DNA of 28,193 nt from a virus. Of this stretch, positions 2 through 18,125 are shown in pieces. The translations under genes and the position numbers were made by a program. The stretch spans positions 1 through 28,193 of IMG/VR virus record IMGVR_UViG_3300006919_000312. One strand, 5' to 3'. The notes beneath the pieces were generated by a model that ran no database searches, was not told the DNA's origin, and saw only the letters and a list, made by a program, of their open reading frames with translations. Numbering within the stretch: position 1 is the first letter of the stretch; the number at the start of each line of letters is the position of its first letter.

Positions 2-706
2 TCAGTACCCAAAGCACAGCGTAAGAAGTTGGCCAAGGTCAAAGTTATGAAGCGTAACTATCGTTGGCAAGGGATTAGTCGGGATTGGTGGAAGGATTAT
101 CCTGGTGATCTTGAACTGGATAATAACACAGGGATTTATGTAGACCTCAAAGCAAATGATCCTGTGATGGATGAGTGGGGTTGGAATAATGAACGTGTCT
201 GGAGTACAGTGAATAGGATGAAGGCATGTGGTCTGATCCCACAAGACACAGTTATCTATGGTTGTCCTGCCAATGTGAAGAACAGGTTAAAGGACCACCC
301 GAACTATATGTCAGTGAAGGAAGCTGATCAAATGTGTAGGGATATCATCTCAAAGAGAGCAACTCCATCTCTCAAAGCCAAGCTGGCCACTGCACAGACA
401 GTAGAATCTTTCCTAACACAGGAAGACATACCTCTTGACATCGATGTGAAACAAGGTTATTATAAACAATGTAGTGATTACATTGATCTTCTAAACAGGA
501 ATAAGGAGATTACATCCTTCATTAAATATGAACTAGTTGATCATCGTAAAGATCAGTTAGTTAGTAAGATCAAAGATATCATTAGAGATAACTTTGAAAG
601 GGACTATCCTCTGCTGCAAGGCAACTACAGAAATACCAACTGTGAACATACAGCAGAGTACATCAAGATGAAATCGTATATCATAGAACAAGGAGTAAAA
701 CTATGA
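2..706 (+). CDS. RIIA-like protein, C-terminal part (5' end outside window)
   Basis: The reading frame is open from the first bases of the window. The only early start codon is a TTG at 29 with no ribosome site, so I read this as the last ~235 residues of a longer gene. I see no catalytic motif. It is rich in charged residues, with a segment around YGCPANVK that resembles, from memory, the C-terminal part of podoviral RIIA-like proteins. The call rests mainly on position: its stop codon overlaps the start of a clear RIIB-like gene by 4 bases, the classic rIIA-rIIB order. In T4 the pair is membrane-associated and counters exclusion by a resident prophage; the role here is unknown. Its base use is AT-rich (18 G/C in 481-540) while the next gene is GC-rich. 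It contains a promoter-like site at 435-463. It could also be an unrelated early protein. Confidence 0.55.
   Translation, partial: SVPKAQRKKLAKVKVMKRNYRWQGISRDWWKDYPGDLELDNNTGIYVDLKANDPVMDEWGWNNERVWSTVNRMKACGLIPQDTVIYGCPANVKNRLKDHPNYMSVKEADQMCRDIISKRATPSLKAKLATAQTVESFLTQEDIPLDIDVKQGYYKQCSDYIDLLNRNKEITSFIKYELVDHRKDQLVSKIKDIIRDNFERDYPLLQGNYRNTNCEHTAEYIKMKSYIIEQGVKL
435..463 (+). promoter_or_regulatory. Sigma-70 type promoter P1 (inside RIIA-like gene)
   Basis: TTGACA at 435-440, a 17-base spacer, and TATTAT at 458-463. Both hexamers and the spacer are close to the bacterial housekeeping consensus. The predicted RNA start is near 470, about 230 bases upstream of the RIIB-like gene at 703, so it could supply that gene and the replication genes with transcript independent of the upstream operon. 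It shares its -35 hexamer and exact spacing with three other plus-strand sites in the window. Confidence 0.6.
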
Positions 707-5509: not shown

Positions 5510-5538
5510 TTGACAAGCACATCACAGCTTGCTACAAT
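5510..5538 (+). promoter_or_regulatory. Sigma-70 type promoter P2 ahead of SSB gene
   Basis: TTGACA (5510-5515), a 17-base spacer, and TACAAT (5533-5538). The spacer ends TTGC, giving a TGn extended -10. It occupies the gap between the polymerase and SSB genes. The RNA would start near 5545, about 35 bases ahead of the SSB ATG, with AGGAGA at 5565-5570. This is the only one of the four sites that lies in non-coding DNA. It would drive high expression of SSB, the tRNA and the nucleases by host RNA polymerase. Confidence 0.85.
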
Positions 5539-5579: not shown

Positions 5580-6077
5580 ATGAGCAACAAACACGAAGAT
5601 GTCGTCATTGAAGCTACCCTGTACTGGCCCTTCCTTGGTAAGGTCAACGATATGTCTGGTAAGTACCAGGTTGACCTTGGTCAGTTGGACAAGAATGCCA
5701 TCAAGGCTATCCAAAGTCTTGGTCTGACTGTCCGTACTGATCAGCCTAAGGACGAAGATAAGCCTGATCGGGAGCAGTTCATCACGGCTAAGTCTAACTA
5801 CCCGTTCAAGGTTCTGTTCAAGAACGGTGTCAGTGTTGTTCCTGTTGACAAGATTGGTAACGGCACCAAGGCCCGTATCAAAGTCAACTCGTACGATTGG
5901 CAGTTCAAGGGTAAGTCTGGTTCGTCCCTGTCTGCCAAGGTTATCCAAGTGACTGATCTTGTGGAGTACACGGGTGTTGTTGATCCTGACTTTGAAGACT
6001 CCACCCCTGCGCCGGGGCAGTCCCACCAGACGGATGAGTTGAACGACGACTTGTCTGATCTGTACTCGGACGACTAA
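5580..6077 (+). CDS. Single-stranded DNA-binding protein, T7 gp2.5-like
   Basis: This 165-residue protein has the features of phage SSBs of the gp2.5 kind. An N-terminal WPFLGKVNDMSGKYQVDL segment opens an OB-type fold, a central FITAKSNYPFKV strand region follows, and the C-terminal tail ends in alternating acidic residues (DELNDDLSDLYSDD). That tail is used by gp2.5 to contact the polymerase and helicase. It coats single strands and coordinates replication and recombination. The gene has its own promoter at 5510 and an AGGAGA ribosome site. Its codons (GGT, CGT, GTT, AAG) look highly expressed, as expected for a protein needed in large amounts. It is shorter than T7 gp2.5 (232). Confidence 0.85.
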   Translation: MSNKHEDVVIEATLYWPFLGKVNDMSGKYQVDLGQLDKNAIKAIQSLGLTVRTDQPKDEDKPDREQFITAKSNYPFKVLFKNGVSVVPVDKIGNGTKARIKVNSYDWQFKGKSGSSLSAKVIQVTDLVEYTGVVDPDFEDSTPAPGQSHQTDELNDDLSDLYSDD

Positions 6078-6089
6078 AACTACACAGGG

Positions 6090-6165
6090 GCCGGGGTAGC
6101 TCAGTTGGTAGAGCAGTTGCCTTGTAAGCATCAGGTCGCCAGTTCGAATCTGGTCCCCGGCTCCA
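6090..6165 (+). tRNA. tRNA-Thr (anticodon UGU)
   Basis: This 76-base tRNA has a perfect 7-bp acceptor stem (GCCGGGG with CCCCGGC), a U discriminator and an encoded CCA. The D-arm GCTC...GAGC and T-loop TTCGAAT are present. The anticodon loop CTTGTAA gives anticodon TGT, which reads ACA. The anticodon stem GTTGC/GCATC has a U-U mismatch at the second pair (28-42), and the first T-stem pair is G-U. It lies 12 bases after the SSB stop and 20 before the exonuclease gene on the same transcript, so it must be cut out of a messenger RNA. Phage tRNAs usually supplement codons rarer in the host; ACA fits the AT-rich genes here. Confidence 0.95.
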
Positions 6166-8174: not shown

Positions 8175-8364
8175 TTGGGTTGAGTTTAGACATGCAGTAT
8201 GTGACAGGTACACCTCTGCTGAAATTGTGGATACCCTTGGGTTGACAGCTGAAGAACTTTATGCTACACTTGAGGTACACATCATAGAGAACTACCAATT
8301 GTTTGACCTTGTCCTTAGGGAGATGGGATTAGACTATGAAGAAGAAGAGGAGGAAGAGTATTAA
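8167..8364 (+). CDS. Small protein with poly-Glu tail
   Basis: This 65-residue protein starts at ATG 8167 (a GTG at 8164 is also possible), overlapping the end of the phosphoesterase gene by 8 bases. The body (YTSAEIVDTLGLTAEEL) has the look of a short helix-turn-helix: two helices around LGLT. It ends in a run of seven glutamates and a Tyr. The DNA encoding that acidic run is read in a second frame as the basic start of the next small gene. Promoter P3 lies inside it. The function is unknown; DNA mimicry or binding would be speculation. Confidence 0.72.
   Translation: MIDWVEFRHAVCDRYTSAEIVDTLGLTAEELYATLEVHIIENYQLFDLVLREMGLDYEEEEEEEY
8242..8270 (+). promoter_or_regulatory. Sigma-70 type promoter P3
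   Basis: TTGACA (8242-8247), a 17-base spacer ending ATGC, and TACACT (8265-8270), with a TGn extended -10. It lies inside the small acidic-tail gene. The RNA would begin near 8277, about 60 bases ahead of the basic mini-protein at 8336, and would continue through MazG and the ribonucleotide reductase. The same -35, spacer length and TGC context occur in P2. Confidence 0.7.
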
Positions 8365-8503
8365 ACCAAGAAACGTGGCGGCTCATGAACTTGAGTCACC
8401 ACTGTATCAACATAAGATCATCCCTAACAAGAAACGAGGACAACAAGATGTTTCAAAAGCTACTAGGAAGAGACAAGCCAGAGATGGAGGAGATTCTATT
8501 TAA
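8336..8503 (+). CDS. Basic 55-residue mini-protein, overlapping both neighbours
   Basis: ATG at 8336 opens a 55-residue frame beginning MKKKRRKSIKPRN, then HELESPLYQHKIIPNKKRG, ending in a second basic segment (KATRKRQARD). Its pattern (basic start, short P-L-Y/F-x-x-K-I/V-x-x-x-K-K core) resembles small basic proteins found at this place in many T7-like phages, so I believe it is real. The first 29 bases overlap the poly-Glu end of the upstream gene in another frame, and the last 56 overlap the next gene. AGGGAG lies 13 bases upstream, rather far. It is probably a nucleic-acid binding accessory, by composition only. Confidence 0.65.
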   Translation: MKKKRRKSIKPRNVAAHELESPLYQHKIIPNKKRGQQDVSKATRKRQARDGGDSI

Positions 8504-9436: not shown

Positions 9437-11128
9437 ATGATCGGACCACAAGTAAAGGAGTGTGCAGACCTACATGCTACGAAATACAGGTTACCAAATG
9501 AGTCATATGAAGAAGGGATCGCCCGTAATGCAGCGGCACTTTCCGACAGTGAAGGTCACCGACAAAAACTTAGAAGCATTCTTGGAGAGCAACGATTTAT
9601 GCCAGCCGGGCGAGTGCAATCTGCAATGGGTTCCCCTAGAGATGTTACAGCCTACAACTGTTTCGTTTCGGGAACTATTGAAGACTCGATGGAGAGTCTC
9701 TACAAGAGGACTGCACAAGCGGCTGAGACAATGCGGCGAGGGGGTGGGATTGGTTATGACTTCTCTCGTCTACGTCCTCGTGGTGATCGGATTGTCAGTC
9801 TCGACTCTTCCGCTTCTGGCCCTGTTAGCTTCATGCGAGTCTTTGATGCTTGGTGCGCAACGATTGTATCGGCGGGTCATAGACGAGGAGCAATGATGGG
9901 TGTCCTCCGTGTCGATCACCCTGACATTGAGGAGTTCATCCGTGCCAAACGAAATGAGACTGACCTTCGTAACTTCAACATCTCCATCGGCATTACTGAC
10001 GAGTTCATGAGGTGTGTTGAGAAAGGAACCACCTTTGATCTGGTATTCGAAGGACGGGTTTACCGTACCATTGATGCTGGTGCGCTTTGGGATGAGATCA
10101 TGCGAAGCACCTGGGACTGGGCCGAGCCTGGTGTACTGTTCATCGACAGGATCAATCAAGACAATCCCCTATTCTATGTGGAGCGCATTGAAGCAACTAA
10201 CCCGTGTGGAGAGCAACCCCTCCCGCCTTTCGGTGCTTGTCTCCTTGGTTCGTTCAACCTAGTTAAGTATGTAAACCCTGAAGGGAGGTTCAACTTTGAC
10301 CTATTTAAAGAGGATATCCCTCATGTTGTACGTGCGATGGACAACGTTATCGATAGGACAAACTACCCTCTTAAAGAACAGCGTGAAGAGGCTCAGAAGA
10401 AACGTCGGATGGGATTGGGCATCACCGGCACTGCTAACGCTATACTTCTATGCGGTCATTCTTATGGTGATGATGCTTCACTACGTCTTGTACGTAAAAT
10501 CATGAAGACTTTGTGTCTCACCGCATATGAGACATCGTCTGACTTGGCTGTTGAGAAGGGTACATTCCCTTTGTTCAGTGAAGAGTACCTTGATAACGAG
10601 TTCATGCAGAAGTTTCCTGATGATCTCAAAGCCAAGATCAAACAACAGGGTATGCGTAACAGTCACCTGATCAGCATTGCCCCTACAGGTACCATCTCCT
10701 TCACCGCTGACAACATCAGCAGTGGCATTGAGCCGGTGTTTGCGTACGAGGTACACCGTACTGTGGAGACAGACCTAGGTAAGGTGATCGTCCCTCTGAA
10801 GGACTACGTATGGAACTACCACGGCCTCAAGGATAAGACTGCGGATCAGTTGTCTGTTGATGACCACCTCAACATGCAGATTGCAGTGCAGCCTTGGGTG
10901 GACTCAGCCGTATCAAAGACCCTGAACGTGGGTGATGATGTCACCTTCGAAGAGTTCAAGGATACCTACCTCAAGGCATGGAAGGGTAAGCTGAAAGGAG
11001 TCACCACCTTCCGTCCCAGTGGTAAACGCTACGGTATCCTGAACAAGGTAGAGCCTGAAGAGGATGTGTATGAGGACGGTGCCGCCTGTTTCATTGACCC
11101 TGAGACTGGACAAAAGGAGTGCGGATAA
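9437..11128 (+). CDS. nrdJ-like: Adenosylcobalamin-dependent (class II) ribonucleoside reductase
   Basis: This 563-residue protein would reduce ribonucleotides to deoxyribonucleotides using coenzyme B12. The redox/radical cysteines are visible: C75 in YNCFVSGT, C257 in the N-P-C-G-E motif (N255, C257, E259), and C268 in GACLLGSFNL. RGGGIGYDFS (101-110) and the phosphate-binding APTGTIS (415-421) are also typical. A C-terminal pair (C551, C562) would shuttle electrons. The CLLGSxNL form, compact length and absence of any small (NrdB) subunit gene nearby point to class II rather than class I. GGAGG lies 10 bases ahead of the ATG. With MazG it forms the phage's DNA-precursor supply. Such enzymes are frequent in marine podoviruses infecting B12-using hosts. 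Confidence 0.93.
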   Translation: MIGPQVKECADLHATKYRLPNESYEEGIARNAAALSDSEGHRQKLRSILGEQRFMPAGRVQSAMGSPRDVTAYNCFVSGTIEDSMESLYKRTAQAAETMRRGGGIGYDFSRLRPRGDRIVSLDSSASGPVSFMRVFDAWCATIVSAGHRRGAMMGVLRVDHPDIEEFIRAKRNETDLRNFNISIGITDEFMRCVEKGTTFDLVFEGRVYRTIDAGALWDEIMRSTWDWAEPGVLFIDRINQDNPLFYVERIEATNPCGEQPLPPFGACLLGSFNLVKYVNPEGRFNFDLFKEDIPHVVRAMDNVIDRTNYPLKEQREEAQKKRRMGLGITGTANAILLCGHSYGDDASLRLVRKIMKTLCLTAYETSSDLAVEKGTFPLFSEEYLDNEFMQKFPDDLKAKIKQQGMRNSHLISIAPTGTISFTADNISSGIEPVFAYEVHRTVETDLGKVIVPLKDYVWNYHGLKDKTADQLSVDDHLNMQIAVQPWVDSAVSKTLNVGDDVTFEEFKDTYLKAWKGKLKGVTTFRPSGKRYGILNKVEPEEDVYEDGAACFIDPETGQKECG

Positions 11129-11292
11129 TGAAGTATTTTATCCTTAAGAAAGTGTATGAACATGTTGCCACATACGATACGGAGGAGAAAGCTGAAGAAG
11201 TTCTTGACCAATTAGGTAGAGATTATATGAACTCTTTCGGAGAGTTTAGTCCTTACTTCATTGAAGAATATGAGGGGGATGAAGATGCCTGA
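11128..11292 (+). CDS. Hypothetical 54-residue acidic protein
   Basis: The ATG overlaps the reductase stop (TAATG), and AAGGAG at 11114-11119 lies 8 bases ahead inside the reductase gene. The protein reads as a short strand-helix-strand: MKYFILKKVYEHVATYDTEE, a helix (EKAEEVLDQLG), then FSPYFIEEYEGD. Placement and codon use look genuine. It could be a small reductase partner, since glutaredoxin-like genes often follow phage reductases, but it has no cysteines, so it is not a redoxin. Confidence 0.75.
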   Translation: MKYFILKKVYEHVATYDTEEKAEEVLDQLGRDYMNSFGEFSPYFIEEYEGDEDA

Positions 11293-12374: not shown

Positions 12375-12773
12375 TCATTGCTTGCTTCCATCCATAAAGG
12401 TCTTGGCACCTCTGACCAATCCTTTGATGCCGAACGAAGCAGCGAAGCAGACATAAAGAAGGGTCCAGTACTCTTCTGGGATGCGTGTCTTGATAATAAT
12501 AAAAGCAGACTCAAGCCGAGACACAACTTCCATATCACCAAAGGCAGCAGCAACAAACATAACAATAATCGGAGCAGTGATGACAATGGTAAGGTACTCA
12601 TCCTTCCAACTGTCACCACTGTTCTCTGCCTGGATGGCGTCCCAATCCTGATCCCCTTTAATTACAGCCACATCACGTTCGTGCTTGGCCTGGGCTTTCT
12701 CAGCCTTGTTAGAGAGGTACTGTTTACCTACACTGAACAAGCCAGAAACTATTGATCCTAATATTGGTATCAT
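12375..12773 (-). CDS. Holin, GTA-type three-helix family
   Basis: This 132-residue membrane protein has a short hydrophobic N-terminal helix (IPILGSIVSGLFSV), a charged helical segment with DQDWDAIQAE and SWKDEY (~42-60), a strong membrane span at 61-79 (LTIVITAPIIVMFVAAAFG) and another at ~102-119. The Dxx-W...SWKDE pattern before the first full span is characteristic of the 'holin of 3 TMs' family described in gene transfer agents and many podoviruses. It would open the inner membrane at lysis. It is the last gene of the late operon, 17 bases after the fibre gene, with GAAGGGAAAG as ribosome site. It ends 6 bases from the convergent early operon. Confidence 0.82.
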   Translation of the reverse strand: MIPILGSIVSGLFSVGKQYLSNKAEKAQAKHERDVAVIKGDQDWDAIQAENSGDSWKDEYLTIVITAPIIVMFVAAAFGDMEVVSRLESAFIIIKTRIPEEYWTLLYVCFAASFGIKGLVRGAKTFMDGSKQ

Positions 12774-12790: not shown

Positions 12791-13948
12791 TTAAACGTTA
12801 TCGTAAGCGTTGAGGCTGAACCGGCAGATGACATCACATGTGCCAGTCCCACCAGATGCGTTCGCCGTGAAATACAGCACGTCGCTTGACGTTAGAAGGA
12901 ACTTGATTGGGTCTCTAATAGTATTATGGTCCTGTACCGACGTATCAAGGTTCACCCTGAAAATCTCGTATCGGGTTGCCAAGTTCCTGTTGAAGGCATA
13001 ACCTTTCAAGATGATGTCTCTTGACTTGTTAGACGAGATGATGTTGAAATACAGAAACTCTACCACTGCCGTCTGGCTGAATCCTGTGTGAAAAATGCAC
13101 TGCTGCGTGACGGACCCCTCTGCCGGGATGCTGGCTTGAAAGCTGCCGTTCGTCGTCGCCGTAATAGTGATGTTACTGGCGTTGTAGTTGAGGCTACCGG
13201 ATGCGCTAACTAAACAACGATTAATCCCAAAGCCAGTGAAGCTAGTGGTATCTGTGCCGTCCGTGCCTAGATTATGTTCGGCGACAGCTTGGTTGCCGTC
13301 AGAGTCCAGATAGTAGAATGTCAACTGGGTCGCGCCTGTCGTACCCGCTCCGTCTGTTGACCCACCAGCAGTGCCATCATAGGCGATGTCGAAGGTGGAA
13401 GCCGTGGTGAGGATCGTCGGCGCTGTCGCACTGTCAGGCCAGATGATGCTCTCTGTGCCATCGGCCAGCGCCAATCTATAGCCAAACGTGTTCCAACCCA
13501 GCACACCGCTGCGAAGATTTCGCCGCACTTCATCCTGGAAGTCTGTGGGGCGCACGATGATGGCATCAGTGTCCACGCCAACCGATTGATTCAGTGGCGC
13601 GTTGCCATTGCTATATGGGCCAAAGTAGGTGTATAGACGGAGATAAGTCTGGTCGCCATCTGCGTCGTTCACGAAGCGCACCCGCACATACCTACCGTTA
13701 ACCTTGGCATTGTGGTATTCGTGGATACCCGCCGCAACCCGGAAGCCTTGCACAGGGAACGTACTGTCAGAGTTCACGGCATCGTTAGAGAAATCGAAGT
13801 ATAACGTACCCGGCTGGTCTGTCTTGAGGCTGACCGTTGCGCCATCTAGGCAGCGTGACCATGTACCAGTGAAGGTACTTCCACTTGTCAGTAAGGTAGT
13901 TGTGGTATTTTCACTATTTACTGACGCACCATTAGGAATATAACTCAT
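12791..13948 (-). CDS. Tail fibre / adhesin-like structural protein
   Basis: This 385-residue protein is rich in Ser, Thr, Asn and Gly, with beta-strand-like alternation throughout and few charged clusters. The N-terminal part (SYIPNGASVNSENTT, then FTGTWSRCLDGATVSLKTD) recalls a discoidin-like or galactose-binding-type beta sandwich frequent in marine phage fibre genes; a region with AIIVRPTDFQDEVRRN follows. No enzyme motif is visible. It starts one base after the stop of the collagen-like gene, so the two are probably co-translated and may be parts of one host-recognition structure. The DNA is GC-rich (37 G/C in 13321-13380). Confidence 0.75.
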   Translation of the reverse strand: MSYIPNGASVNSENTTTTLLTSGSTFTGTWSRCLDGATVSLKTDQPGTLYFDFSNDAVNSDSTFPVQGFRVAAGIHEYHNAKVNGRYVRVRFVNDADGDQTYLRLYTYFGPYSNGNAPLNQSVGVDTDAIIVRPTDFQDEVRRNLRSGVLGWNTFGYRLALADGTESIIWPDSATAPTILTTASTFDIAYDGTAGGSTDGAGTTGATQLTFYYLDSDGNQAVAEHNLGTDGTDTTSFTGFGINRCLVSASGSLNYNASNITITATTNGSFQASIPAEGSVTQQCIFHTGFSQTAVVEFLYFNIISSNKSRDIILKGYAFNRNLATRYEIFRVNLDTSVQDHNTIRDPIKFLLTSSDVLYFTANASGGTGTCDVICRFSLNAYDNV

Positions 13949-13949
13949 C

Positions 13950-14588
13950 TTACATAATCACCCAGTTGTTTCCATCACTCTGAAGACGCAAAGATGTCCA
14001 CTGTTTTGTGATGATGGTTGTTGTGTCTCCATCAATTGTCTCTGATTTATACCCGTCAATGGTGACAGTATTCGCAGACGAATCAATCTTCTTAACTGTG
14101 ACAACTCTGCCCACCATCGATCCGGCCCTGGGTAGTGTAACTGTCATCTGGTTAGACGATGCATCACACAAGACTGTGCTATGGTTGTCTTTAAGCTGGA
14201 CAGTTGACGATGTGAACGTGTTAATCTGATAACGCATCACATCACCACCTCCTCCACCACCCGATTGTCCACCCAATTCCACCCATTTACCCCATGTGCC
14301 GTCTGGTTTCTGGAATCTGATGCTGTTGCCTTTGATCTCATGGTCTGGCATCGGACCCATCTCACCATCAACACCATCCCTTCCGTTTAAACCGTCCCTT
14401 CCTGGCTCTCCAGTGGCTCCTACAGCGCCATCTTTGCCGTCTAGGCCATCTACCCCATCCTTACCATCAACACCGTCCCTGCCGTCCTTGACAGCCTTCT
14501 CAGACTGTTTTATACTATAGATAAGATCAAGGGCTTGAGTAGCCATCTTGAGAGCAAGCGTTGCAATATGGGAGTTTAATTCAGACAT
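13950..14588 (-). CDS. Collagen-like fibre protein
   Basis: This 212-residue protein has three parts. An N-terminal helix (1-33) comes first. Next is an uninterrupted collagen-type Gly-X-Y tract at ~36-78, about 14 triplets, mostly with Asp-Gly (RDG VDG KDG) and a few neutral ones. A linker with a run of glycines (~109-115) leads to a beta-rich C-terminal domain (~120-212) with the TVTLPRAG...VTIDG pattern common at phage fibre ends. Collagen-like tracts in phage fibres form triple helices, so a trimeric fibre is expected. No good ribosome site precedes the ATG at 14588; coupling over the 110-base gap is unlikely, so the start is less certain. The plus-strand promoter P4 lies within it. Confidence 0.85.
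   Translation of the reverse strand: MSELNSHIATLALKMATQALDLIYSIKQSEKAVKDGRDGVDGKDGVDGLDGKDGAVGATGEPGRDGLNGRDGVDGEMGPMPDHEIKGNSIRFQKPDGTWGKWVELGGQSGGGGGGDVMRYQINTFTSSTVQLKDNHSTVLCDASSNQMTVTLPRAGSMVGRVVTVKKIDSSANTVTIDGYKSETIDGDTTTIITKQWTSLRLQSDGNNWVIM
14488..14516 (+). promoter_or_regulatory. Sigma-70 type promoter P4, antisense within late operon
   Basis: TTGACA (14488-14493), a 17-base spacer, and TATACT (14511-14516). It is on the plus strand, opposite to every structural gene around it, inside the coding region of the collagen-like gene. The RNA would start near 14523 and reach the plus-strand ORF at 14587 after a leader of about 64 bases. It matches P1-P3 in the -35 hexamer and exact spacing. 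Confidence 0.65.
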
Positions 14589-14823
14589 GGAATATATGGA
14601 GCTTGTTTATTTAGTGTTCAACATCTGCGAAGAAGGTCTGTACGATATGGCGGCTTGGTTGGGTATTTCTTACGAAGAACTCAACATCCTCCTGTTTCTT
14701 ATTCTTCATCCTTTATACTCGATAGTGTTGACTTTAATCTGTCTAAGCGAGTACCTTCAAGGTAAATCTTCGACTTCTTATCCCCTTCAGGCTGGAGAAG
14801 ATAACCAAGGACACGTAGTTTAG
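14587..14823 (+). CDS. Antisense-oriented small membrane protein
   Basis: This 78-codon plus-strand ORF lies in the minus-strand late operon. Its first ~37 codons fill the 110-base gap between the collagen-like and lysozyme genes, where I found no usable minus-strand frame. The rest is antisense to the end of the lysozyme gene. It begins MEYMELVYLVFN, has an amphipathic region (EEGLYDMAAWLGISYEEL) and a hydrophobic span ending near LTLICLSEYL (~37-60). The GISYEELN-hydrophobic-HPL pattern resembles small membrane proteins I associate with marine phages. GGGAG lies 12 bases ahead; an alternative ATG is at 14596. Promoter P4 is 70 bases upstream. Membrane location is likely, so superinfection exclusion or control of lysis is possible but unproven. 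Confidence 0.6.
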   Translation: MEYMELVYLVFNICEEGLYDMAAWLGISYEELNILLFLILHPLYSIVLTLICLSEYLQGKSSTSYPLQAGEDNQGHVV

Positions 14824-16189
14824 TATACCCATCCAACTCAGAGTCTTGGAAGAGGTCGAAGACACCACCAAAGAAGCCTTTCTTCTTGACTATGTCTTCA
14901 TACTTCTTCCCTTTCTTTCCCTCATTAAAGTCATACACATCTTCAATGTAGACTCCGTTCTCGTCCTCTTTGATCTCCCCTGCCCCAATAGTCATAGCCA
15001 TGTTAGCCACTGGGTCCTGCATGATAGTCATAATCTTTCCCATCAACCCAGTCCCTTTGCCATCAGTTGAAGCAAGGTCCTCCCCAATGAGATTAGCCCA
15101 GTCTTCTTTGTTAAAAGAGGTACGACCTTGTGCCTCGATATGCATATACATCTTTCTGAGGGCATCAATATCCCCTTCTTGAAGGTTCAAGGCTGTGTTT
15201 TGTACGTTGTCCACATCAATACCCAACCACTTTTCCATAGCACCTTTTACGAGGGACTCACCAAAAGATGTGAAGGCGGCAGGGGTAATGTTAAACTTAG
15301 ACGCAGCCTTCTCAATCTCAGGTTTACGAGGAGCAGGGCCAACACCACTCAGCTTACCCAGTGTCTCATTGGCTTGTTGTAGAGCCATCTGCTGTTCTGC
15401 TTGTTGGGGAGTGATCTCAGCAGCAGCTGCACTGCTGATTGGATTGATTGTACTGAGGACTTCGGCCATCATATCACCGAAACCACTCCCCTCATCTATA
15501 TTTGCAGAGGCAAACAACGAAGCTTCCGCTGCCCTCCGACGTGCCAGACCACGACTCTTCTCACCATTGATGTTGACGAAGCCAGCTTCTTCAGAGAAAG
15601 CTTCGTGCATGAAGTCTTCGATATGCCCAGCCTCAAGATACTTCTTAGCTTTGGAACCGCCCCATGCACCAGACCCCACATTGTAGATGAGGCTGGTCAG
15701 AGCTTCAACCTTAGATTCGTCAGTGTCAAGTCCTACCTTCTTCAGTGAGGCAATGGCATGTGTCTCAGCCCACAACGTATCAGACTTCAACACCGCCTCT
15801 GCCTGTTCCTGTGTCAGGCCAAGACGGTAATCAACAAGCTCTCCTTTGATATCTATGAAACCTGACTCAGCTTCATCAGCGGTAAGCTTATGCCCATATG
15901 CAATAGTCTGAGTACCCCCTTCCAAAGAATTATGAGGGAACCATTTACCTTCACGAAGACCAGCATTGACGCTATTCTCAAACGCCTTGATCTTCTCCAC
16001 GCTAGTTACTCCTTTGTCCTCATCTAAGTTACCAAGACCAAGTACCAAGTCAAGGTCCATGTTATCCAGTTCTGTAAGAACCTCACTATCACTCATACCC
16101 ACAGGTACTTCAACATCAACCATACCATGAAGAGGATGGTCTACCTTAACGGATTCATAAGTCTGGTCGATGTCAACAATTTCAGTCAT
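14699..16189 (-). CDS. Virion-associated lysozyme (GH24-type) / internal protein
   Basis: With the ATG at 16189, one base after the upstream stop (an in-frame TTG at 16216 is less likely), the protein has 496 residues. Residues ~60-228 form a lysozyme domain: catalytic Glu E71 in AFENS, the TIAYGH motif (95-100), GLTQEQAEAVLKSD, LTSLIYNVGSGAW (164-176) and the closing GLARRRAAEASLF (214-226) are all typical of GH24 muramidases. The preceding ~55 residues contain HPLHGMVDVEVPVGMSD, a short motif often seen at the start of phage ejection proteins. The long C-terminal half is charged and helical. It probably travels in the virion and cuts peptidoglycan during DNA entry, the job of the T7 gp16 N-terminus. 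It could also contribute to lysis. Confidence 0.85.
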   Translation of the reverse strand: MTEIVDIDQTYESVKVDHPLHGMVDVEVPVGMSDSEVLTELDNMDLDLVLGLGNLDEDKGVTSVEKIKAFENSVNAGLREGKWFPHNSLEGGTQTIAYGHKLTADEAESGFIDIKGELVDYRLGLTQEQAEAVLKSDTLWAETHAIASLKKVGLDTDESKVEALTSLIYNVGSGAWGGSKAKKYLEAGHIEDFMHEAFSEEAGFVNINGEKSRGLARRRAAEASLFASANIDEGSGFGDMMAEVLSTINPISSAAAAEITPQQAEQQMALQQANETLGKLSGVGPAPRKPEIEKAASKFNITPAAFTSFGESLVKGAMEKWLGIDVDNVQNTALNLQEGDIDALRKMYMHIEAQGRTSFNKEDWANLIGEDLASTDGKGTGLMGKIMTIMQDPVANMAMTIGAGEIKEDENGVYIEDVYDFNEGKKGKKYEDIVKKKGFFGGVFDLFQDSELDGYTKLRVLGYLLQPEGDKKSKIYLEGTRLDRLKSTLSSIKDEE

Positions 16190-16190
16190 G

Positions 16191-18125
16191 TTACTTCTCT
16201 TCTTTCGAGCGGCCAATGATACGGATAGAGCGTTTCTCTTCTGCCTTGTCCTGTTTTTGGAATTGCTTACGCTCCTCCTCAGTCATCATGAACACCGGCT
16301 TACCGATCTTAATCCATGCCTTACTCTTCTTGTATTCTTCAGGACTCAAACCAATCTCAATAAGAGGGCTGGACTCAGGTACACTCTTTTGAATACTGGG
16401 CCATTGCATGTTGATGATATTTGTACGTACATTCACAGCACCTTTGTTCTTGTCAGGGGTGAACTGCTGGAACTTCATCATCCTGTCCAATGCAGCGTTG
16501 GCTTGTAGTGCAGCTTCCTTTGCTTCGGAAGAGTCACCAGAGACAGAGAAGATACCATCTTTCGTAGTGACCTGTACCCCTGTGTCCTTGGCAATCTGTG
16601 CTAGTTCTTGCATTCGTTGACTGACTGCCTCATGAGAGGTCTGGTTGTAGAAGTCAACAGCTTTTGCAGCGGTAGCTGGATCAGCTTTCTGTAGTTGTTT
16701 GATATACTCGATACCATTACCCCCGCCCATCACATCAAGTACCTCAGTCTGGTTGGCTGAAGTCTTAAGGTGGGCATCACCACTGATAATCATGTCTACT
16801 GTATTGCTGATAATTTTCTGATCTTCAATAGCTGCTGGGGCTGCTCCTTTAATAACACTTAACGCTACACTTTGGTTCATCTGCCTTTGAAATTCATTTT
16901 GGGTGAACTTCTTATTACCACTAACCAGATGGGATAAGGAGCCATTCAATACTGCCTTCCCATCCATCCCTACAGTGGCAATGTGTTTATCAATACGCTC
17001 TTTGAACTTTGGAATCTTGTCCAACAAAGTACCGGCGAAGGTATCTCCACCCAGTTGTTTGGCGAGGAAGACCTCTTGCATGGCGCCATCATTTAAAGCA
17101 TCAACCATTAACTGGTTCTCAATAGCTTTACGGGCAAAGCCAGAGTTTTCTTGTAGTTTTTCCAGCGCCTTCTCCTCTGTTAATTCAGAGGCGTCCAACC
17201 CCATAACTGAACCAAGCTGGTTGATCAACCTCAAGGCTGGTTCCATCGCATAGTCCAACTCAGCTTGTGTAAGCCCCGGCCCCTGCCCATCATGATCGTA
17301 CTGTTGGATCAATCTGGCTTTGGCATTGTTGATATAGTTCCCCATCAACACCCGCAACTCTGCTTTACGTTCCATACTTGCGGTGTCGAACTCTTCCAAC
17401 ATAGGAAGTAGCAAACCCGTCCCAAACTTGGTTGTGGCTTCCCTACTCTTGTTCAAATCAGCAACAAGGGTAGTGCGGAATGTGGAACCTGAGAGACTAC
17501 CACTACCGGCAGCTTTACCCTTGGCACTGGCAGCAGTCATCACGGCCCCGTTAGCCCCCACCATATCGTATGCAGCCACAGCTTCAGTATCAGAACCACC
17601 GACAAAACCAGCAGCCCGGGCTTGGGTGACCTTACGGGTCCACGCCGCCTGTTTAGTTGCCCTCGCCTCTGCCTCAAGTCTGTCAGCATTAGCCGCCATC
17701 GCAGCTGTAGGGCTGACCTGTCCGGTGACATCCTTAAATGCTTTGTCGATTGTGGCCCTATCCGTCTTACCAGGGTTATCACGATACAGGCTGTTACGGA
17801 TAGATTGGAGCTTCAACTCACGTACAGAACTGTTGGGGATACTGGCTGCAAGTTTGAGTTCTTTCCTGGCTTTGTTGAAGTACTCAGGGTCTTGAACAGA
17901 ACTGGTGATCTCTGCCTCAATACTAGTCACAGCCTCAGACCTGATGTGATCCTGACCAATCTCATTAGCCAAGGTAGCCCCTTGAGCAAACAACGTACCA
18001 ATGTTACCGATCAAGTCTCCTGCGGCAGTGTTAACCTCAGTATTCACCGATACGTTGGTGGGCTGGGCAAACCTTGTATCAGGTTCGCTGACCGTTGATG
18101 TAAAGCCTTTTCCTCTGGTAGCCAT
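16191..18125 (-). CDS. Internal virion (ejection) protein, gp15-like
   Basis: This 644-residue protein is helical and Ala/Lys/Glu-rich, with no membrane segment and no catalytic motif. The start has several Thr/Ser and Val-rich stretches, and the end is basic-acidic mixed (KQDKAEEKRSIRIIGR). Its size and place among gp14-like, giant and lysozyme proteins suit the T7 gp15 type component of the tube that crosses the cell envelope. The ATG overlaps the stop of the giant upstream gene (TGATG). The assignment is by synteny and composition, not by recognised motifs. Confidence 0.75.
   Translation of the reverse strand: MATRGKGFTSTVSEPDTRFAQPTNVSVNTEVNTAAGDLIGNIGTLFAQGATLANEIGQDHIRSEAVTSIEAEITSSVQDPEYFNKARKELKLAASIPNSSVRELKLQSIRNSLYRDNPGKTDRATIDKAFKDVTGQVSPTAAMAANADRLEAEARATKQAAWTRKVTQARAAGFVGGSDTEAVAAYDMVGANGAVMTAASAKGKAAGSGSLSGSTFRTTLVADLNKSREATTKFGTGLLLPMLEEFDTASMERKAELRVLMGNYINNAKARLIQQYDHDGQGPGLTQAELDYAMEPALRLINQLGSVMGLDASELTEEKALEKLQENSGFARKAIENQLMVDALNDGAMQEVFLAKQLGGDTFAGTLLDKIPKFKERIDKHIATVGMDGKAVLNGSLSHLVSGNKKFTQNEFQRQMNQSVALSVIKGAAPAAIEDQKIISNTVDMIISGDAHLKTSANQTEVLDVMGGGNGIEYIKQLQKADPATAAKAVDFYNQTSHEAVSQRMQELAQIAKDTGVQVTTKDGIFSVSGDSSEAKEAALQANAALDRMMKFQQFTPDKNKGAVNVRTNIINMQWPSIQKSVPESSPLIEIGLSPEEYKKSKAWIKIGKPVFMMTEEERKQFQKQDKAEEKRSIRIIGRSKEEK

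What the first reader, a model, noticed from the sequence alone, without database searches (positions are those of the whole stretch)
14488..14823. Antisense gene unit with its own promoter inside the late operon
A near-consensus sigma-70 promoter (TTGACA, 17 bases, TATACT) points the opposite way to all surrounding virion genes. About 70 bases downstream begins a 78-codon ORF encoding a likely membrane protein. Its first half fills the only sizeable gap in the late operon, where no minus-strand frame exists, and its second half is antisense to the lysozyme gene end. This would be a separately controlled, possibly early-expressed membrane protein (exclusion or lysis control). Its RNA would also be antisense to the lysozyme and ejection genes, a second possible regulatory effect. 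The promoter and ORF are seen directly; the function is inference.
Basis: partly seen in the sequence, partly recalled or inferred. Interest (0 to 1): 0.78.

Follow-up and report, generated by a model that had tools for sequence, protein, structure and literature searches.

The report
Antisense early membrane-protein gene in phage
Inside the block of genes that build this phage's virus particle sits a real, conserved gene running the other way from its own early-type promoter; it makes a tiny two-helix membrane protein of a so far unnamed family, probably made early to change the infected cell's membrane, perhaps to keep rival phages out.

Summary
The 78-codon plus-strand ORF (14587-14823) overlaps the 3' end of a lysozyme-domain gene (14699-16216, minus). 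A homologous antisense ORF at the same spot occurs in 10 distinct loci (window included). Three other relatives lack it, and there the next sense gene starts 1-38 bp after the lysozyme stop. In the non-overlapping part, differences fall mainly at third codon positions (50/21/86). Seven of 10 loci have TTGACA-N17-TATACT/TATTAT/TATAGT upstream; three do not. The same promoter class occurs along the early-gene strand and is absent from the window's late strand. The protein is predicted as a two-helix membrane hairpin. It has no family in Pfam, NCBIfam or PHROGs; relatives lie behind nrdB in pelagiphages and, patchily, in SAR11 and Bacteroidota genomes. Related phages swap the ORF together with the lysozyme C-terminal domain, in two pairs with the break at the ORF start codon. 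The anatomy matches P22 sieA. Best reading: an early small membrane protein, most likely for superinfection exclusion; timing and function are inferred. Antisense-RNA regulation is at most secondary.

The parts
14488..14516 (+). sigma-70 type promoter TTGACA-N17-TATACT of the antisense gene (expected RNA start about 14523)
   Evidence: conserved in 7 of 10 distinct loci
14570..14574 (+). possible weak ribosome-binding site GGGAG, 12 nt before the ATG
   Evidence: sequence; relatives have AGGAG/AAGGA
14587..14823 (+). 78-codon ORF for a small two-helix membrane protein
14589..14698 (.). gap of the late arm filled by the first 37 codons of the ORF; here differences show the codon pattern
14699..16216 (-). 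505-aa virion-type protein with a Phage_lysozyme domain; its 3' end overlaps the ORF by 125 bp; its C-terminal domain is swapped together with the ORF among relatives
13950..14588 (-). collagen-like tail fibre gene; its start (CATG) shares bases with the ORF start, and the promoter lies inside it
5510..5538 (+). early-arm promoter of the same class (TTGACA-17-TACAAT with TG), 41 nt before the gene at 5580
8242..8270 (+). early-arm promoter of the same class (TTGACA-17-TACACT with TG), before the gene at 8385
435..463 (+). third early-strand site of the class (TTGACA-17-TATTAT), inside the first gene

Best explanation
A genuine nested early gene. Host RNA polymerase reads TTGACA-N17-TATACT soon after infection, in the direction of the early arm, and makes an mRNA for a 78-aa protein that forms a helical hairpin in the inner membrane (gene, conservation and promoter are shown; timing and membrane location are inferred). 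Most likely mechanism, inferred: the protein sits in the infected cell's membrane and blocks or disarms the ejection apparatus of a superinfecting related phage (lysozyme-bearing and other ejection proteins), as P22 SieA does and, by inhibiting the virion lysozyme, T4 Spackle does. Sub-confidences: real gene 0.95; early sigma-70 expression 0.8; exclusion or self-protection 0.4.
For: Antisense ORF at the same site in 10 distinct loci, absent only where the gap is absent. Codon-position pattern 50/21/86 in the gap; pN/pS 0.24-0.52. Promoter conserved in 7 of 10 loci and of the early-arm class. Helical hairpin with a hydrophobic second helix, pLDDT 85. Same anatomy as P22: gene 16, then sieA on the opposite strand with its own promoter, then the tailspike; [quoted passage not shown] The ORF is exchanged together with the lysozyme C-terminal domain under an unchanged promoter.
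Against: No RNA or protein data. Three loci keep the ORF without a clear promoter. No sequence similarity to SieA. Sense-oriented relatives behind nrdB in pelagiphages and patchy chromosomal relatives fit a broader membrane role. Linkage to the lysozyme C-terminal domain is partly forced by the overlap, and L028 breaks it.
Confidence: 0.45

Rival explanations
1. Early host-takeover membrane protein: it imitates a small host membrane protein and modulates a host membrane complex, with no role in exclusion.
For: Relatives in SAR11 and Bacteroidota chromosomes and behind nrdB in the early arm of pelagiphages.
Against: Patchy occurrence in hosts (11 of 147 and 5 of 198 genomes) speaks against a core host complex; fixed position beside the ejection genes and cassette exchange are not predicted by it.
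Confidence: 0.3
2. Lysis control: an antiholin-like or lysozyme-restraining membrane protein that delays lysis.
For: A membrane protein encoded at the lysozyme gene, near the holin-like gene 12375-12773 (weak PHROG holin match).
Against: Early-class promoter; the lysozyme partner has a long C-terminal domain and looks like a virion protein, and a relative has a separate 152-aa lysozyme; three relatives lack the ORF.
Confidence: 0.12
3. The transcript acts mainly as an antisense RNA that dampens the lysozyme and ejection genes; the ORF is secondary.
For: The RNA would be complementary to the lysozyme 3' end, and no strong terminator follows the ORF before 15358.
Against: Strong coding signature; overlap varies from 17 to 125 bp; three loci keep the ORF without a clear promoter; the overlapped sense sequence is replaced among relatives while the protein frame stays.
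Confidence: 0.04
4. A chance open frame under a chance promoter match.
For: Antisense frames are common: many other plus-strand ORFs of 60 aa or more exist in the late arm.
Confidence: 0.02

Closest known systems
Salmonella phage P22 sieA (superinfection exclusion)
   Same: Short membrane-protein gene directly behind the last ejection-protein gene, on the opposite strand, with its own promoter, before the tailspike gene; inner-membrane protein; sequence types under 30% identical (PMC10883804).
   Different: No sequence similarity; 164 aa against 78; P22 is temperate and sieA does not overlap gene 16; exclusion is untested here.
T4 Spackle (inhibitor of the virion lysozyme gp5)
   Same: Early product associated with a virion lysozyme (PMC7677548).
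   Different: Spackle is a periplasmic protein not encoded at its target gene; the present protein is predicted to be membrane-embedded; lysozyme binding is untested.
Phage Fc02 olg1 and gene 10 (exclusion genes overlapping on opposite strands)
   Same: Small exclusion gene antisense to another phage gene, with its own promoter (PMC9936078).
   Different: Located in the lysis-lysogeny control region of a Mu-like temperate phage; Olg1 is soluble; other genes overlapped.
Unannotated ORF behind nrdB in Pelagibacter phage HTVC115P and marine contigs
   Same: Homologous small membrane protein.
   Different: Sense orientation at the end of the early arm, not antisense to a lysozyme gene.

Membership tests
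Unnamed small membrane protein family of marine phages, SAR11 and Bacteroidota | shared profile with the motif F..C...L..(A)..G[IT][ST]YE..N...F.I..P | tested here: met
   A profile of the ten antisense phage proteins finds the chromosomal relatives at 4e-10 to 1e-14 in ten whole genomes and 58 frames at 1.6e-8 or better among 8,710, next hit 0.21
P22 SieA | sequence similarity to a SieA type | tested here: not met
   No BLASTP alignment with P22 SieA; other SieA types not tested
P22 SieA | gene on the opposite strand behind the ejection-protein genes, own promoter | tested here: met
P22 SieA | inner-membrane protein | tested here: inconclusive
   Predicted hairpin with hydrophobic helix; no localisation data
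P22 SieA | blocks DNA injection of related phages | not testable with these tools
   Needs plating and DNA-entry assays
T4 Spackle | periplasmic inhibitor that binds the virion lysozyme domain | not testable with these tools
   Binding cannot be tested here; the predicted membrane hairpin does not look periplasmic
Moron (self-contained inserted gene) | inserted between genes that are adjacent in relatives | tested here: met
   L005, L025 and L029 lack it, with 1-38 bp between lysozyme and the next gene
Moron (self-contained inserted gene) | own promoter | tested here: met
   (7 of 10 loci)
Moron (self-contained inserted gene) | own terminator | tested here: inconclusive
   No terminator-like site on + between 14823 and 15358; simple scan only
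Known curated families (Pfam, NCBIfam, PHROGs, PADLOC) | match above the curated cut-off or a clear E-value | tested here: not met
   only weak matches (E 0.007 or worse for family members)

The most novel reading that the evidence does not exclude
The antisense membrane protein and the C-terminal domain of the ejection lysozyme it overlaps are a matched specificity pair (exclusion factor and target) that phages swap as one two-strand cassette under a fixed early promoter.
Probability: 0.2. Interest if true: 0.82.

Novelty: new variant of a known kind. Interest (0 to 1): 0.62.

Why it matters
It shows that phage late operons can hide conserved early genes on the opposite strand, which gene-calling rules against antisense overlap tend to discard. 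It defines an unnamed membrane-protein family shared by marine phages, SAR11 and Bacteroidota, and gives a concrete superinfection-exclusion candidate that simple expression and plating can test. The joint exchange of the gene with the ejection-lysozyme C-terminal domain makes a specific prediction about its target.

Tried and rejected
DNA search of 10 kb against the phage collection gave nothing. tblastn of family members against phages gave no credible match (only weak tape-measure hits at E=7); one member found HTVC115P. Pfam matches to baculovirus Ac76/Ac81, PHROG matches at E 0.02-1 and a PADLOC match at 0.007 were rejected as weak, membrane-composition matches. Foldseek against viral models gave nothing below E 0.79, as expected for a two-helix hairpin. 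The promoter-like site of L017 (TTGCCT-17-TATAAT) was set aside because a like site occurs in L025, which has no ORF. A search with the 1552-aa protein returned no locus. Neighbours in SAR11 (MzaB-like, C5-methylase and nuclease genes in L055 and L058) hint at variable or defence regions but are too anecdotal to use. Antisense RNA as the main function was considered and rejected (see rivals).

Full report
WHAT IS THERE. The window is a virus record of 28,193 bases. Its genes resemble Zobellviridae: the 742-aa head protein matches SIO1-like roseophages, Methylophilales phages and others at 33-37% identity. The early arm (replication, ribonucleotide reductase) runs on + from 1 to about 12158; the late arm runs on - from 12375 to the end. 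Inside the late arm, + carries TTGACA-17-TATACT at 14488-14516 and a 78-codon ORF at 14587-14823. The ORF fills the 110-bp gap between the fibre gene (13950-14588, -) and the lysozyme-domain gene (14699-16216, -) and overlaps the latter by 125 bp. Other apparent gaps of the late arm hold small minus-strand ORFs.

MORE THAN CHANCE. A 99.55% identical contig (L002/L003) keeps ORF and hexamers; its two SNPs near the promoter lie in the spacer. Distant relatives are more telling. With the lysozyme protein and then an alignment of it, 17 loci were fetched. A scan of the region after each lysozyme stop found an ORF on the opposite strand, overlapping the lysozyme 3' end by 17-125 bp, in the window (and L003), L017, L018, L019, L020 (=L021, L022), L023, L024, L026, L028 and L030 (=L031): 10 distinct loci. 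L052, close to L028, adds one more. In L005, L025 and L029 the ORF is absent and the next sense gene begins 1, 38 and 11 bp after the stop, against 98-377 bp where the ORF is present. So gap and ORF come and go together.

CODING EVIDENCE. In the part that lies opposite no gene, differences between pairs of relatives fall 50/21/86 at codon positions 1/2/3 over 202 codons (chi-square p=2e-9; pairs share members, so the p-value is approximate). pN/pS over the whole ORF is 0.24-0.52. The proteins align; even the two most different classes match in profile comparison (E about 2e-7 to 3e-7 for the single pair).

PROMOTER. TTGACA-17-TATACT, TATTAT or TATAGT (11 of 12 matches) stands upstream of the ORF in the window, L020, L023, L024, L026, L028 and L030, with 27-70 nt from the -10 box to the start codon (in L023 the homologous start lies 14 codons further in, so the leader is longer). 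L017 has only TTGCCT-17-TATAAT, and a like site occurs in L025 without the ORF; L018 and L019 have none. In the window and L028 the promoter lies in the start of a fibre gene, so fibre codons could contribute to its conservation there; in L020, L024, L026 and L030 it is not inside a long sense gene. In the window the three sites with 11 matches are all on + (435, 5510, 14488), with a fourth at 8242 (10 matches, TG before the -10 box); the late strand has none with 11, and shuffled sequence gives 0.25 per strand. In relatives the same class marks the early arm: G005 at 1869, 5758 and 8499 plus the antisense gene at 13547; G008 at 11197 and 13926 plus 18685; G012 at 10308 and 13540 plus 4399. 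The antisense gene thus carries an early-class promoter and runs in the direction of the early arm. Timing remains inferred: there are no RNA data.

THE PROTEIN. AlphaFold2 on a 26-sequence alignment gives two helices, 3-25 and 29-61, with pLDDT of at least 90 in 56 residues and mean 85; the second helix holds the hydrophobic stretch 34-52. The conserved G-[IT]-[ST]-Y-E is the turn and the start of the second helix. No Pfam, NCBIfam, PHROG or PADLOC family fits. Relatives exist behind nrdB in the sense direction in marine phage contigs and, unannotated, in Pelagibacter phage HTVC115P; and in chromosomes, mostly SAR11 with some Bacteroidota. A profile of the ten antisense phage proteins finds these in whole genomes at 4e-10 to 1e-14. 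They are patchy: 11 of 147 genomes of the SAR11 order and 5 of 198 Bacteroidota. The individual loci were picked by a motif, but the genome samples were not, apart from the centre genome of each.

CASSETTE EXCHANGE. L020 and L024 are identical for 110 of 110 bases up to the ORF start codon (promoter, leader, ribosome site). From the ATG on, the ORF DNA falls to 34% and the lysozyme C-terminal domains have no BLASTP match, while the lysozyme N-terminal domains are 76% identical. L018 and L019 show the same with 92% identical N-terminal domains. L026/L029 and L030/L005 show ORF present against absent with N-terminal domains 89% and 77% identical and different C-terminal domains. C-terminal types and ORF classes go together in {window, L017}, {L019, L026, L030} and {L018, L024}, but L028 has a class-c ORF with another C-terminal domain. 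Part of this linkage is forced by the overlap.

MECHANISM. Shown: a conserved coding gene and a conserved early-class promoter. Predicted: a membrane hairpin. Inferred: early synthesis by host RNA polymerase and a role in the infected cell's membrane. I favour superinfection exclusion for three reasons. First, the anatomy equals P22 sieA: gene 16 ends at 13313 (+), sieA is 13336-13830 (-), its promoter 13861-13891 (-), the tailspike starts at 16204 (+). [quoted passage not shown] Third, the ORF is exchanged like a specificity factor. T4 Spackle, an early product that inhibits the virion lysozyme (PMC7677548), is a second functional parallel, and phage Fc02 shows small exclusion genes that overlap on opposite strands (PMC9936078). 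That the 505-aa protein is virion-associated is inferred from its position, its long C-terminal domain and the separate 152-aa lysozyme gene in L004. Against: relatives behind nrdB and in host chromosomes point to a broader membrane role, which is the main rival.

WHAT IT IS NOT SHOWN TO BE. It is not a SieA by sequence. A terminator of its own was not found, so the moron label fits only in part. The antisense RNA effect has no independent support.

Noticed in passing
L020/L024, L018/L019, L026/L029, L030/L005 (lysozyme 3' ends): The lysozyme C-terminal domain is exchanged among relatives as a cassette while the N-terminal domain stays 76-92% identical; the antisense ORF goes with it and in two pairs the break is exactly at its start codon.
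   Followed up: partly
L053:6001-6228 (+), Pelagibacter phage HTVC115P 16988-17215: An unannotated small membrane-protein gene of the same family overlaps the 3' end of nrdB in an isolated pelagiphage; the record's annotation leaves it out.
   Followed up: partly
L055, L057, L058, L061, L065, L069 (SAR11 chromosomes): Family members lie in variable surroundings, with a recurring small gene directly upstream (L055, L057, L058), a recurring gene of about 190 aa nearby, and in places MzaB-like or DNA-methylase genes.
   Followed up: partly
window 6090-6165 (+): tRNA-Thr (anticodon TGT) between the SSB-like gene and the nuclease-like gene of the early arm.
   Followed up: no
L023, just downstream of its antisense promoter: Read on the opposite strand, the sequence gives MATKALDLINSIH-stop, similar to the window's fibre segment MATQALDLIYSIK: apparently a remnant of a fibre gene under the promoter (sequence).
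   Followed up: no
window 13950-14588 (-): The collagen-like fibre gene has no clear ribosome-binding site before its listed ATG at 14588; it may start at the later ATG (codon 15).
   Followed up: no
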